DNA from: a virus
Length of the DNA: 41,642 nucleotides
Strand: one strand, 5' to 3'
IMG/VR virus record: IMGVR_UViG_3300033997_000031
Coordinates: 1 to 41,642 of that record
The notes under the pieces are model-generated. The model ran no database searches. It was not told the origin of the DNA and worked only from the letters and a program-made list of their open reading frames with translations. This document shows positions 1,774 through 35,161 of this stretch, in pieces (positions within the stretch are counted from its first letter, which is position 1; each line of letters starts with the position of its first letter). The position numbers and the translations under genes are program-made.

Positions 1774-2364
1774 ATGACTGCACAAGTTAAATATAAACTC
1801 GGGGAACGTGAAGCTAACGGGCTGTGCCGTGTTATTGCTGTGGAGGCGTTCTCCAATGTATCGGTGGGGGATGTTGGTGGGTACATAGAGTCAGAGCAAA
1901 ATCTCGCACATACTGGTAATGCTTGGGTGTACGGGGATGCTCGGGTGTACGAGGATGCTCGGGTGTCCGGAAATGCTCAGGTGTACGGGGATGCTCGGGT
2001 GTCCGGAAATGCTCAGGTGTACGGGGATGCTCGGGTGTCCGGAAATGCTCAGGTGTCCGGAAATGCTCAGGTGTGCGGAAATGCTTGGGTGTACTGGGAT
2101 GCTCGGGTGTCCGGAAATGCTCGGGTGTACGGGGATGCTTGGGTGTCCTCTGTGTGTACTGTGACACCTAAAGTAATTACAGGGTTACTGTATACCCTCA
2201 CCATAACAGACAAACACCTACGGGCAGGGTGTCAAGTTCATACCTACCAAGAGTGGCGTACTAAAACAGAGCGCGAGGTACTAGCTATGGACGGTAAAGC
2301 TGCATTGGTGTTCTACAAGGAAACACTCATCCCACTAATGGATGTTCTTAAGTTGGGGGTTTAG
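1774..2364 (+). CDS. Hexapeptide-repeat beta-helix protein, 196 aa (YdcK-like)
   Basis: After an N-terminal lead (KYKLGEREANGLCRVIAVEAF, then GGYIESEQNLAHTGNAWVY), residues 48-125 are thirteen six-residue repeats of the type GNA-x-V-x / GDARV-x. Such repeats fold as a left-handed parallel beta-helix. The C-terminal part (GLLYTLTITDKHLRAGCQVH, then EW) is the conserved tail of this phage family, which resembles E. coli YdcK at the N-terminus. Function is unknown; proposals include binding or scaffold roles. The DNA repeats are nearly exact, so copy number may change in frame. Confidence 0.75.
   Translation: MTAQVKYKLGEREANGLCRVIAVEAFSNVSVGDVGGYIESEQNLAHTGNAWVYGDARVYEDARVSGNAQVYGDARVSGNAQVYGDARVSGNAQVSGNAQVCGNAWVYWDARVSGNARVYGDAWVSSVCTVTPKVITGLLYTLTITDKHLRAGCQVHTYQEWRTKTEREVLAMDGKAALVFYKETLIPLMDVLKLGV
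1915..2148 (+). repeat. Tandem 18-bp coding repeats (13 units)
   Basis: Thirteen imperfect copies of an 18-bp unit (of the type GGGTGTACGGGGATGCTC) encode the hexapeptides of the beta-helix protein. Several adjacent pairs form a near-exact 36-bp higher-order unit that alternates ACGGGG and CCGGAA variants. As 18 is a multiple of three and the unit has no stop in several frames, long false reading frames appear on both strands here. Confidence 0.9.
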
Positions 2365-4352: not shown

Positions 4353-5069
4353 ATGTTGCAGAGTACAATACACAGTGTGGACTTGCAGATGTTATCTGCA
4401 TATGAGTTCAATAAGTTACCCGCCCGAGTGCGTACAGAGTTATTGGCGAGTGGTAAGTTGGGTGTTGCGGTACGGCGGCGTAGTCGGCTGGTGAGTGGTG
4501 TGGGTACAAACGATGCTGGGTATTCTGTATCAGCTTACTTACAAGGCATCTTGGTTATGTGTCCTGCATATACTGCATGGCAACATATGCTAACACGTTG
4601 CTACTCCGGTAAGTACCATAAGCAATATCCTACATATATTGGATGTTCCGTGTGCGTTGAGTGGTTGTCATTTACAACCTTTAGGCTCTGGTGGTTGGCA
4701 AACCACGTCGACGGGTGGGAACTGGATAAGGATTTGTTGGTAGTTGGTAACATGGTGTATAGTCCACAGACCTGTGTATTTGTACCTAAATGGCTGAATA
4801 GTTTTACAACTAATAGTAAATCCATTAGAGGTGCTCTGCCAATAGGAGTCCGTTTACATTCACGTAGTAAGGTTAATCCCTACCACGCTCAGTGTAGTAA
4901 TGGTTCTGGTTCCCAGATACATCTGGGTTGTTACCCAACACCAGAAGCAGCACATGCCGCTTGGCTAAAGTATAAACTTGGTATGGTGGATTCTATGCAG
5001 ACACAACTCGAAGGTATCCTTCCCGGACTCACTGAGAAGGTGCGCACAAAGATTATGTCTTTGAGGTAG
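4353..5069 (+). CDS. HNH-type homing endonuclease with AP2-like C-terminal domain, 238 aa
   Basis: The middle of the protein shows the usual phage pattern of this group: a W-x-x-M-x-x-RCY helix (YTAWQHMLTRCYSG), then P-x-Y-x-G followed by V-x-EWLSF, then WELDKDLLVVGN, YSPQTCVFVP and a helix ending LNSF. The C-terminal region (PYHAQCSNGSGSQIHLGCYP, TPEAAHAAWLKYK) resembles the AP2/ERF-like DNA-binding unit found in phage HNH enzymes. Such genes are selfish and cut related genomes lacking them. It stands free between early and replication genes. AGGAG lies before ATG 4353. An intron association was considered but no interrupted gene is visible. Confidence 0.75.
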   Translation: MLQSTIHSVDLQMLSAYEFNKLPARVRTELLASGKLGVAVRRRSRLVSGVGTNDAGYSVSAYLQGILVMCPAYTAWQHMLTRCYSGKYHKQYPTYIGCSVCVEWLSFTTFRLWWLANHVDGWELDKDLLVVGNMVYSPQTCVFVPKWLNSFTTNSKSIRGALPIGVRLHSRSKVNPYHAQCSNGSGSQIHLGCYPTPEAAHAAWLKYKLGMVDSMQTQLEGILPGLTEKVRTKIMSLR

Positions 5070-13943: not shown

Positions 13944-15380
13944 ATGCGTACAGGTACTTATGGTATTGAAGAACAGGGGCGCATTGTCCCTATCTCTGTA
14001 GAGCTAGTAGATGTACTAGGCTCTGATGTGAACATCGTTAACGCTGCCCGTGTATCCTTCGCTAAGGAAGTGCAAGAGGTAGGTGAGGCCGACCAGAAGC
14101 TAATGCGCTACCTGTGGAAGCACAAGCACTGGACTCCGTTTGCGCATACTTGTATTACTGTGCGTTGTAAAGCACCCATCTTCCTTGCACGACAACTGGT
14201 TAAACATCAGGTAGGTCTGTGCCTATCAGCAGACACAGAGATTACATTTGTTAAACATGCTAATGGTGCGTCCAACGGGACGTACAAGCAAACATTAGCA
14301 GATATTGCCAACATGTGGTTTGGTAAAGTTAAGTACCAAGGCGGGGCCAAAGGGAAGCGTAATATCACAGTACGTAACGTGCGTGTATACGACGAGACTA
14401 CTCGGCGCTTTGCTATTGGGCATATAAGCGATGTTATAGACAGCGGGATTAAGGATGTTTATCGCATAACCGATGAGTACGGTCATAGTATTAAGACGAC
14501 AGCCAACCACCAATTACTAACACAACGTGGTTGGGTAGCGTGCGCAGATATATTTCCGGGGGATATGTTAATTCGCAGTGATGTAGGTGCTACATTTGGC
14601 CAAACTCCATTAGCGCGCTGTGATTCGGAAGATGTAATTACACGACGTAACTACAGGGCTAGCGTACAGGCTGTGTCAAACTGTGCTAACTGTGGTGCAC
14701 AACACACAAAGGATAACTTGGAGGTAGACCACATCAGACCAGTACGTGATGGTGGTTCCCATGCATCCGATAACCTGCAAATGTTGTGTGTACCGTGTCA
14801 CAAGGCCAAGACGGCACAGGAGCTGGCTGATAAACGTTCGACTACACTACTACCTAAGTATACATCGGTTGTCTCGGTGGAGTTTATTGGAAAGGAGCAA
14901 TGCTACGATATAAGCATTCCCAAGTACCATAACTTCATAGGTAATGGGTTTGTAGTCCATAACTGTTGGAACGAAGAGTCCCGGCGCTATATAGATACTA
15001 AACCTGAGTACTACATTCCGGACTCATTGCACATTGCACCTACTAATGCAAAGCAAGGTGCAGGTACAGCATTTACAGAGGCGGAGTACAAAGCTAAGAT
15101 TGACCGCCTTATTCAAAACACTGATGAGTGCGATGATATGTACTTGAATAGTATCCGTGGTGGTATGGCCCCTGAAGAGGCGCGTATGTTCCTCCCGCTG
15201 AATACACATACCAACTGGGTATGGTCTGGTTCCTTGGTAGCATTCATGCGTATCATTGAACAGCGCTCGGATTCACATGCCCAAGGTGCCGCTCAAGAGT
15301 TCGCTAAACTACTACGTGCTGCTATCTCGAGTACTTACCCTATGGCTATTGCTGCATATAATGAGGTACATAATGGTTAA
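13944..15380 (+). CDS. thyX: Thymidylate synthase ThyX interrupted by an intein, 478 aa precursor
   Basis: Flavin-dependent ThyX converts dUMP to dTMP. The N-extein (1-92) ends RQLVKHQVGL and the C-extein (341-478) starts CWNEESRRYID. Joined, they recreate the ThyX substrate-binding signature (H/R-rich strand, then NE-x-S-x-RY), giving about 230 residues, a normal length. Other conserved parts are NAARVSFAKE, WTPFAHTCITVRCKAP near the N-terminus and LPLNTHTNWVWSGSLVAFM at the C-terminus. The enzyme should be active only after protein splicing. Upstream MazG-like and downstream DUF3310 genes overlap or adjoin. Confidence 0.9.
   Translation: MRTGTYGIEEQGRIVPISVELVDVLGSDVNIVNAARVSFAKEVQEVGEADQKLMRYLWKHKHWTPFAHTCITVRCKAPIFLARQLVKHQVGLCLSADTEITFVKHANGASNGTYKQTLADIANMWFGKVKYQGGAKGKRNITVRNVRVYDETTRRFAIGHISDVIDSGIKDVYRITDEYGHSIKTTANHQLLTQRGWVACADIFPGDMLIRSDVGATFGQTPLARCDSEDVITRRNYRASVQAVSNCANCGAQHTKDNLEVDHIRPVRDGGSHASDNLQMLCVPCHKAKTAQELADKRSTTLLPKYTSVVSVEFIGKEQCYDISIPKYHNFIGNGFVVHNCWNEESRRYIDTKPEYYIPDSLHIAPTNAKQGAGTAFTEAEYKAKIDRLIQNTDECDDMYLNSIRGGMAPEEARMFLPLNTHTNWVWSGSLVAFMRIIEQRSDSHAQGAAQEFAKLLRAAISSTYPMAIAAYNEVHNG
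14220..14963 (+). mobile_element. HNH-containing intein in ThyX, 248 aa
   Basis: Residues 93-340 of the precursor. The N-terminal splice block starts with Cys1 (CLSADTEITFV); block B is KTTANHQLLT (T-x-x-H). An HNH nuclease follows with CANCG, LEVDHIRPVRDGG, SDNLQMLCVPCHK. The C-terminal block is YHNFIGNGFVVHN followed by Cys+1 of the C-extein. All catalytic splicing residues (C1, TxxH, penultimate H, terminal N, C+1) are present, so it should splice. The HNH makes it a potential homing element. Confidence 0.9.
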
Positions 15381-32707: not shown

Positions 32708-34831
32708 ATGACTGTACAGTACAGCATTCAGGAAATGATATCTGATGGTACGTTGAGTACTATTGCGCTCGGCATACAGTACCTACAACGAAATGACATT
32801 TACATGCGTATCGCTGGGGAGGAGACTCCACAAAGTGGTGCACCTAATGGGTATACTTGGACATTTATTAATAACACTACACTGAAGATTACACCTATAG
32901 TGCCCAGTAGTGTAGAGGTGGTAATTTATCGGCGTACAGATATAAATGCGATGTATAACATATATAGCCAGAATGCCCAATTCGATGAGGCTACTATAGA
33001 TGAGAACAATGAACAACTACTATACATAGCACAAGAGTATTTAGAGCAAGGTATTCCAGGGGCTGGTGTTGAATCTCTGGAGTATATTAATACAGCAGCT
33101 GGTATAAACTACTACAGGTTTAAGTTGACAGATGGGTCTGTGACCCCGCCGTTCGGTGTGCCTGATGGTACTGATGTGTTGCGTACTGAATTAGTTAGTA
33201 CAGCAGGGGCTAGCCTTGTTGGTTCTGCATCATACACAGATGTGCGCTTGTATACAGGCTCCGCTACACGTATAAATGTGTATGGTAGGTCTAACATATT
33301 TGACGGTGGTTTTGGTAGTTTTGCCTTGGACGTGGCGGATACTGCGTCGCCAGATAATGACGGTACGATTCTGATAGATGCTCTTGGTCGCAGATGGAAG
33401 CGCATCGTCACTGATGGTAGATTTTCTGTTAAGTGGTTCGGAGCCAAAGGTGACACGGTGAATGATGACGCCCCGCCTACACAAAATGCCGTCGATTATG
33501 TAGGGTCGATTGGTGGCGGCGTTGTATACATGCCCAAAACTAACGGATGGTATAAATGGGGCTCTGGTGTTAAGTTGCCTAGCTACGTAACTCTGGAAGG
33601 GCCGAATGCAGACCGATTCCCGTTCAATAGTGGAGCTGCCGAGTCTTCGTGTGTAGAGGCTGCCTTCTCTGACCCGATGCAGTGGGTTATAGAGCCGGAC
33701 ACCAGAAAAGTTGGTGGCGAGCGCTTCGCCTACAATGAAATAATCACGCAATCCACACCTTTTAGCTTTACATATAACTGCCAAGTTAAAAACATTTTTA
33801 TCAAGAGTTCGGGCCAGATTCCATATGGCGGAGCCAGGATGCACGGCTGCCCCGGTTCTATCATCGATAACGTGTCTGTTCTGGGGACAGGGACTGGGGC
33901 GTTGATAAACTTCTCGTTCGGGGGAAATTATAAAATCCACACCCTCACCAACTATTATGGTGTGGTTTTGTGGTCGAATGCTAATGCCAATGACTGCGAA
34001 ATATATGCAACAAAACTGATTGAAACTGCACAACTTGTGCCTGTCGCATACCGCATGCCATTCATGGTTGCGCTAGAAGGCTCTACACTTGTTAATGATT
34101 ACAAGCTTCACACAAACGACCACGCAACTAGATCTTTTGGTTTGATAGTCGGTGCTCTTAGTGGCGAAACGTCTAGTGGTAATACTATCTCATATACAGG
34201 GGAGAAATTTAGCGGTGGTAGTTTCCAATTCTTCGGCTATGGAACAACTTTCACTAAATACTATGTGGAGGGGGCGGACGGTGAAATGACCTATGGGTTG
34301 GTCGGTTCCAACGCTAGATTGTCGGTCACGTCTTTGCACTGTTATTTAGAGGACACGGCTGGTGTGGTATTCGACCTCGGTATCGCTGTACAGTCAAACA
34401 TGAACCTAACCGGGCTTCTGAATGCCCCTGTTGGGTATGGGTACGGGCCTTATAACGACCAAACATCAATAGTGGTATTTGACCGTTTCTTTGGTGATGG
34501 ATGGCCTACGAATAGGCGTGTCACGTACACAAGCGGGTCTTCGGAAAAGTCGGCAACTCTTATTAATGGGTGGACAAACACTGGTGGTATGAAACGCCCA
34601 GCTGGGTTTATTTGGCGCGCGACAGACCACACGGTGTCCCTGTATGGTGAAATAACCGGAGGAAGCCCCGGTACTATCGCGCTCATTTTACCAGAGGGAT
34701 TTCGACCACTATATGCGTGTGACTTCGTAGTTGTCGGGGGCTCAGTGCGAGTGTTGGTTAGTGGGGAGGTGGTAGTAATAACTGGAAGCACCCTCGACAT
34801 CGGTCAAGTATCATTTGATGCGTATCTTTAA
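32708..34831 (+). CDS. Tailspike / tail fibre, T7-fibre anchor plus beta-helix receptor-binding part, 707 aa
   Basis: Residues 1 to about 125 are the T7 fibre N-terminal anchor (QYLQRNDIYMRIAGEE, NNTTLKITPIVPSSVEVVIY, RTDINAMYNIYS). A junction region (about 205-240: RRWKRIVTDGRFSVKWFGAK, GDTVNDD) is the standard entry into a pectate-lyase-like beta-helix. The remainder is beta-rich and looks like a capsular or LPS-binding spike, perhaps a depolymerase. Catalytic residues cannot be named. DNA from about 33.4 kb on differs strikingly in word use from the rest of the genome, so the tip appears imported. Confidence 0.88.
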   Translation: MTVQYSIQEMISDGTLSTIALGIQYLQRNDIYMRIAGEETPQSGAPNGYTWTFINNTTLKITPIVPSSVEVVIYRRTDINAMYNIYSQNAQFDEATIDENNEQLLYIAQEYLEQGIPGAGVESLEYINTAAGINYYRFKLTDGSVTPPFGVPDGTDVLRTELVSTAGASLVGSASYTDVRLYTGSATRINVYGRSNIFDGGFGSFALDVADTASPDNDGTILIDALGRRWKRIVTDGRFSVKWFGAKGDTVNDDAPPTQNAVDYVGSIGGGVVYMPKTNGWYKWGSGVKLPSYVTLEGPNADRFPFNSGAAESSCVEAAFSDPMQWVIEPDTRKVGGERFAYNEIITQSTPFSFTYNCQVKNIFIKSSGQIPYGGARMHGCPGSIIDNVSVLGTGTGALINFSFGGNYKIHTLTNYYGVVLWSNANANDCEIYATKLIETAQLVPVAYRMPFMVALEGSTLVNDYKLHTNDHATRSFGLIVGALSGETSSGNTISYTGEKFSGGSFQFFGYGTTFTKYYVEGADGEMTYGLVGSNARLSVTSLHCYLEDTAGVVFDLGIAVQSNMNLTGLLNAPVGYGYGPYNDQTSIVVFDRFFGDGWPTNRRVTYTSGSSEKSATLINGWTNTGGMKRPAGFIWRATDHTVSLYGEITGGSPGTIALILPEGFRPLYACDFVVVGGSVRVLVSGEVVVITGSTLDIGQVSFDAYL

Positions 34832-34867
34832 ACACCTATTAGTTATGGACTACAACTAAGGTATAGT

Positions 34868-35161
34868 ATGGCCGCTAAAAAAAGTTCCTTAGAAACCCTT
34901 CATGAAATGCTCACCGAGCTATTCATTGAGGATATTAAGATATGCCGTAGTGAGGGTATTCCTATGTCTGCATCGGATAAAGCTGTAATCGTTAAGTTCC
35001 TCAAGGACAATGACGTTACTGCTGAACCGGACGAGGCTAAGGTACAGGCCCTACGTGATGAGTTCCAAGACGAGCTTGCTGCAAAGCGTGAAGCTAGACG
35101 TCAGCATATTCTTATGAAAGCAGCAGGTTCTGAAGCAGACCCCCTGGAAGGTGTTCTGTGA
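34868..35161 (+). CDS. Terminase small subunit, 97 aa (T7 gp18-like)
   Basis: DNA-recognition subunit of the packaging motor. Charged, helical protein (LHEMLTELFIEDIKICRSEG, SASDKAVIVKFLKDNDVTA, AAKREARRQHILMKAAG), typical of the T7 gp18/phiKMV family, directly upstream of the large terminase. Confidence 0.85.
   Translation: MAAKKSSLETLHEMLTELFIEDIKICRSEGIPMSASDKAVIVKFLKDNDVTAEPDEAKVQALRDEFQDELAAKREARRQHILMKAAGSEADPLEGVL

What the first reader, a model, noticed from the sequence alone, without database searches (positions are those of the whole stretch)
33366..34830. Receptor-binding part of the tailspike is foreign DNA by two independent word signals
From about 33.37 to 34.38 kb there is no GTAC (about 20 expected at the genome's own rate), and only four in 33481-34830. 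The only GATC in the window lies in the same segment (34131). The N-terminal anchor half before 33.37 kb keeps the normal GTAC rate. The boundary coincides with the protein junction (VKWFGAKGD, about residue 237-245) where beta-helix parts are usually swapped.
Basis: partly seen in the sequence, partly recalled or inferred. Interest (0 to 1): 0.75.

Follow-up and report, generated by a model that had tools for sequence, protein, structure and literature searches.

The report
Tailspike with a swapped receptor-binding domain
The outer, receptor-binding two thirds of this T7-like phage's tailspike came from elsewhere: its only full-length relative found sits on a different anchor in a P22-like phage. 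That is a clear new example of the well-known domain swapping by which phages change the bacterial surface they recognise.

Summary
The longest GTAC-free stretch is 33364-34387 (about 12-14 sites expected, not 20). The only GATC is at 34131, but GATC is not independent evidence: the segment is still GATC-depleted (1 seen, 5.6 expected from its own codons).

The interpretation, a foreign receptor-binding part, is well supported. Codon use conditioned on the protein falls from ordinary in the anchor (z -1.0) to the most deviant in the genome after residue 240 (z -9.8). The sister phage, Aeromonas phage PS, shows the same pattern in an unrelated spike tail. The spike has three pieces with three sets of relatives. 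The anchor (residues 1-151) is 73% identical to PS. The neck (152-245) has no match in PS but is 59% and 53% identical to phages P220 and KM02. The tail (240-688) is 38% identical over its whole length to the spike of a P22-like podovirus contig with an unrelated N-terminus. DNA homology to PS ends earlier, near residue 151, so there are two junctions.

This is a new member of a known kind. Function (surface polysaccharide binding or depolymerisation) is inferred, not tested.

The parts
32708..34831 (+). tailspike gene, 707 aa, between the internal virion protein gene and the small terminase (maturase A) gene
   Evidence: ORF list, translation, synteny with Aeromonas phage PS
32708..33160 (+). 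anchor, residues 1-151, T7 gp17-type N-terminal domain, inherited with the rest of the genome
   Evidence: PF03906 match residues 3-115, below the Pfam cut-off; PHROG tail fibre families, best 7e-21; solved tail fibre gp47 8vbx E 6.5e-15; 73% identical to PS over residues 1-149; ordinary GTAC rate and codon use
33161..33424 (+). neck, residues 152-239, not homologous to the neck of PS; composition like the native genes
   Evidence: 59% to Aer_P220 tailspike and 53% to KM02 over residues 152-245, no match in PS; fits own codon use
33425..34828 (+). receptor-binding part, residues 240-707: beta-helix cap (pectate-lyase-like start, residues 240-300), predicted beta-rich body, C-terminal domain
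   Evidence: PF12708 match residues 239-300, below the Pfam cut-off; full-length homologue L015 38% identity residues 240-688; deviant codon use z -9.8
33364..34387 (.). GTAC-free stretch
34131..34134 (.). only GATC of the window
34541..34828 (+). C-terminal domain, residues 612-707, possibly a separately travelling piece
   Evidence: weak matches to minor tail proteins and fibres of Gram-positive phages
33136..34897 (.). stretch with no DNA homology to the sister phage PS; homology on both sides

Best explanation
The spike is a mosaic. A vertically inherited T7-type anchor (residues 1-151) fixes the spike to the tail. A neck (152-239) shared with other T7-like phages joins it to a horizontally acquired receptor-binding part (240-707) of a family also carried by a P22-like podovirus. 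The import replaced the part that touches the host surface, presumably by recombination between phages in one cell, and left the virion-facing part unchanged. The acquired part most likely forms a trimeric right-handed beta-helix that binds, and probably cleaves, a surface polysaccharide. Shown: the three sets of relatives, both junctions, the compositional break, and the same pattern in the sister phage. Inferred: recombination as the route, the fold of the body, the trimer, polysaccharide as substrate, and an effect on host range.
For: Anchor 73% identical to PS; neck 59% to P220 and 53% to KM02 but not to PS; tail 38% identical over 443 aa to L015 and unmatched in PS beyond a 52-residue cap. 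L015 encodes a P22-type portal (PF16510, E 5e-180) and P22-type coat (PF11651, E 1e-31), and its spike N-terminus is unlike the window's. The tail homology starts at S240. DNA homology to PS stops near 33135 and resumes near 34898. The spike tail is the most atypical stretch of the genome even with GTAC and GATC left out (z about -4.4) and with the protein held fixed (z -9.8 against -1.0 for the anchor). PS shows the same in its own unrelated tail: longest GTAC gap 900 bases, z -8.9. In L015 the homologous tail fits its own genome's codon use, while the window's tail does not fit the window's. The tail profile's first 60 positions match the Sf6 tailspike and other beta-helix proteins of known structure.
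Against: No donor at the DNA level was found; 38% protein identity means the actual exchange was with some other, unsampled phage, or is old. The tail's codon use fits none of the nine T7-like genomes tested and does not significantly favour L015 (difference 0.042 +/- 0.039). The tail is GATC-depleted like its present genome, so it is not freshly arrived from a donor with ordinary GATC. The synonymous change point (codon 188, 95% interval 156-233) falls inside the neck, so composition does not place the junction exactly at 240. Both structure predictions were of low confidence (mean pLDDT 36 and 35), so the beta-helix beyond the cap is not shown.
Confidence: 0.92

Rival explanations
1. No import: the tail is native and evolved beyond recognition in place under pressure from host receptors, and its odd words reflect relaxed or different codon selection in fast-evolving spikes.
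For: Post-anchor spike codon use is below ordinary in all ten T7-like genomes measured, and the codon deviations of the window and PS tails correlate (r 0.55), as an intrinsic effect would give.
Against: The tail keeps 38% identity over its whole length to a spike of a P22-like phage with another N-terminus, which in-place divergence cannot give. Divergence stops abruptly at module edges while the 5' flank stays about 86% identical. Spike tails of Acibel007 and Bolek have ordinary GTAC rates, so spike architecture alone does not remove GTAC.
Confidence: 0.04
2. The GTAC gap is only amino-acid composition: a protein poor in Tyr/Val contexts has few chances to spell GTAC.
For: Given the protein and codon use, the expectation for residues 220-560 falls from about 12 to 5.3, so composition explains part of the deficit.
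Against: 0 of 1000 synonymous randomisations gave zero. With the protein held fixed, codon choice is still the most deviant of the genome: Tyr TAC drops from 0.66 to 0.32 and Val GTA from 0.48 to 0.26.
Confidence: 0.02
3. A variant of the import reading: the tail came straight from a bacterial chromosome or prophage and has not been altered since.
For: The related phage family (P22-like) includes many temperate phages (general knowledge), and the full-length homologue lies in such a phage.
Against: GATC is depleted in the tail (1 against 5.6, P 0.011), whereas L015 has 27 GATC in 10.8 kb. Two pattern scans of 84,980 prokaryotic genomes found no relative, though those scans see close relatives only.
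Confidence: 0.1

Closest known systems
T7 gp17 / K1F-type tail fibre and spike exchange (conserved N-terminal anchor of about 140 residues, exchanged C-terminal part), as described in PMC6872550
   Same: T7-type anchor of about 150 residues inherited with the genome; everything beyond it differs from the sister phage
   Different: Here there are two junctions, an anchor-neck one and a neck-tail one, and the tail's relative is in a P22-like phage
Aeromonas phages Bolek and Lolek (Beijerinckvirinae), which differ significantly only in the C-terminal part of their tail fibres (PMC9145550)
   Same: Related phages, same gene, same pattern of exchange, same genus of host as the sister phage PS
   Different: Different tail family; the window and PS also differ in the neck
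P22-like phage tailspikes (Lederberg-/Uetakevirus receptor-binding domains shared across genera, PMC10408124)
   Same: The tail family is found on a P22-like phage and the first 60 residues match the Sf6 tailspike of known structure
   Different: The body of the tail has no sequence match to any solved spike; substrate unknown
Aeromonas phage PS spike (QIW89971.1)
   Same: Anchor 73% identical; same gene order; its tail is likewise GTAC-poor and codon-deviant
   Different: Neck and tail unrelated; 856 aa against 707

Membership tests
Modular tailspike with horizontally exchanged receptor-binding domain | N-terminal anchor conserved with near relatives | tested here: met
   73% identity to PS residues 1-149; T7 gp17-type PHROG matches
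Modular tailspike with horizontally exchanged receptor-binding domain | Receptor-binding part not shared with the near relative but shared with an unrelated phage | tested here: met
   No match to PS beyond the 52-residue cap; 38% over 443 aa to P22-like L015
Modular tailspike with horizontally exchanged receptor-binding domain | Break in base or codon composition at the module edge | tested here: met
   z -1.0 to -9.8; change point codon 156-233
Right-handed beta-helix polysaccharide depolymerase spike | Pectate-lyase-like beta-helix | tested here: inconclusive
   Cap region matches PF12708 below the curated cut-off (22.9 against 27) and solved beta-helix proteins; structure models of low confidence
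Right-handed beta-helix polysaccharide depolymerase spike | Enzymatic cleavage of capsule or O-antigen | not testable with these tools
   Needs the purified protein and host polysaccharide
Beijerinckvirinae-like autographivirus (genome context) | RNA polymerase closest to that group; T7-like order of late genes | tested here: met
   RNA polymerase 98.6% to PS, then 45-46% to Petty, Acibel007 and Fri1-like phages; PS linked to Beijerinckvirinae in PMC9145550

The most novel reading that the evidence does not exclude
GTAC is itself a selected or mutationally favoured word in this phage lineage, with an unknown role. Imported spike tails gain it slowly while losing GATC quickly, so the two words together could date how long an acquired receptor-binding part has been resident.
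Probability: 0.15. Interest if true: 0.5.

Novelty: new member of a known kind. Interest (0 to 1): 0.3.

Why it matters
It documents, at residue resolution, a receptor-binding part shared between a T7-like Aeromonas-type phage and a P22-like phage. It also shows that word statistics alone can point to such a swap in a genome with one close relative. The sister phage and two of six further Beijerinckvirinae phages (VH-5, Aristophanes) show a GTAC deficit in the spike tail of similar strength, with Petty weaker, so the signal is a usable marker of imported receptor-binding parts in some, not all, of these phages.

Tried and rejected
Structure prediction of residues 153-707 alone and of 240-707 aligned with L015 gave low confidence, so no fold search was run. 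Pattern scans for close relatives of the whole spike in viral contigs and of the tail in prokaryotic genomes found none. Plasmid records gave no full-length relative, only anchor, neck, cap and partial beta-helix matches. Attempts to name the donor by codon use failed: the tail fits no tested genome. GATC as independent evidence was rejected because the segment is still GATC-depleted. A search for a DNA-level donor of the neck found nothing. A literature search found no report of GTAC enrichment in these phages; the library is incomplete.

Full report
What the window is. It is a 41,642-base virus record with the gene order of T7-like phages. Its RNA polymerase is 98.6% identical to that of Aeromonas phage PS (MT259468) and then 45-46% to Acinetobacter phages of the Beijerinckvirinae. 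PS is the only close relative found. The finding lies in the tailspike gene, 32708-34831, 707 aa, which sits between the internal virion protein and small terminase genes, as in PS.

The observation. GTAC occurs 499 times (12.0/kb), and it is the most over-represented tetranucleotide by base composition. The longest stretch without it is a gap of 1025 bases, 33364-34387; the next is 544. Random placement gives so long a gap with P = 0.0017. Codons 241-end hold 4 GTAC in 1404 bp against 19.5 expected at the rate of the structural genes (P = 2.5e-5), while the anchor has the ordinary 13.3/kb. Part of the deficit is the protein itself: holding the protein and codon use fixed, 5.3 are expected in residues 220-560 and none is seen (0 of 1000 randomisations). 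The lone GATC is real (34131), but it is weak evidence: the tail would have 5.6 GATC from its own codons and has one (P 0.011), so it shares the genome's GATC avoidance.

Independent compositional tests. With GTAC and GATC left out, a Markov profile still ranks 33251-35000 as the most atypical stretch of the window (z about -4.4). With the amino-acid sequence held fixed, synonymous codon choice is ordinary in the anchor (z -1.0) and the most deviant in the genome after residue 240 (z -9.8, -0.30 bits per codon; next lowest gene -0.16). A change-point model puts the start at codon 188 (95% interval 156-233). The neck, 152-239, on average fits the native codon use.

The sister phage repeats the pattern. 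PS has 483 GTAC. Its longest gap (900 bases) lies in its own spike tail, 3 of its 7 GATC lie in the spike, and its spike tail has z -8.9, although that tail is unrelated to the window's. Strong GTAC deficits in the spike tail also occur in VH-5 and Aristophanes, and a weaker one in Petty, but not significantly in Fri1, APK37, Acibel007, Bolek, MKPT02 or T7. Post-anchor codon use is below ordinary in all ten T7-like genomes measured. So this is a common condition of receptor-binding parts, but GTAC loss is not forced by spike architecture.

Relatives by module. The anchor is 73% identical to PS over residues 1-149. The neck (152-245) has no match in PS but is 59% identical to the Aer_P220 tailspike and 53% to KM02. 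The tail (246-707) is 38% identical over 443 aa to a spike in L015 and unmatched in PS apart from a 52-residue cap. L015 is a viral contig, IMGVR_UViG_3300042375_000007, with a P22-type portal and coat. Its portal's best relative is 79% identical, in phage DSL-LC05, deposited with host Gammaproteobacteria. L015's spike N-terminus is unlike the window's, and the homology starts exactly at S240, next to VKWFGAKGD. DNA homology to PS, however, already stops near 33135-33160 and resumes near 34898, so the spike has two junctions.

Direction and age. The L015 tail fits L015's own codon use, whereas the window tail fits the window poorly, which favours the window lineage as recipient of this tail family. 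The tail does not clearly fit any candidate donor. GATC depletion together with absent GTAC enrichment fits either a GATC-avoiding intermediate phage or fast purging of GATC with slow gain of GTAC; the data do not decide.

Mechanism. The anchor attaches the spike to the tail; the acquired part recognises the host surface. Its first 60 residues match the beta-helix cap of the Sf6 tailspike and of epimerases and lyases of known structure. Binding and probably cleavage of a surface polysaccharide is the likely function, by analogy with such spikes (PMC6872550, PMC10408124). Structure models were too weak to confirm the fold.

Place in knowledge. Exchange of C-terminal receptor-binding domains on conserved anchors is well documented: T7 and K1F and the Klebsiella phages (PMC6872550), between genera (PMC10408124), and in the related Aeromonas phages Bolek and Lolek (PMC9145550). 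The finding is real and the interpretation right in substance; it is a new member of a known kind.

Noticed in passing
whole window; also L001 (PS), L005 (Petty), L007 (VH-5): GTAC is the most over-represented tetranucleotide of these Beijerinckvirinae-like phages (2.8-3.2x base composition) and exceeds codon-based expectation in all three reading phases (window 360 seen, 232 +/- 8 expected), yet GGTACC is almost absent (1 copy). T7, P220 and KM02 lack the enrichment. No explanation.
   Followed up: partly
window 14218-14967 (gene 13944-15380): An intein with an HNH endonuclease interrupts the thymidylate synthase ThyX gene; PS has the uninterrupted gene. The intein has an ordinary GTAC rate (8 in 749), so mobile DNA here is not always GTAC-poor.
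   Followed up: partly
window 1774-2364 (array 1918-2146): 18-base tandem repeats encode a YdcK-type beta-solenoid repeat protein near the left end; PS has the same repeats at an end of its circular record.
   Followed up: no
window 4353-5069; L001 4240-4929: A gene of unknown family (no Pfam match) has a 64% identical DNA relative at a different place in PS, on the other side of the primase and helicase genes.
   Followed up: no
whole window: GATC is nearly absent (1 against about 133 expected by the trinucleotide model), as in VH-5 (0), Bolek (2) and T7 (6), while Petty and Fri1 have ordinary numbers.
   Followed up: no
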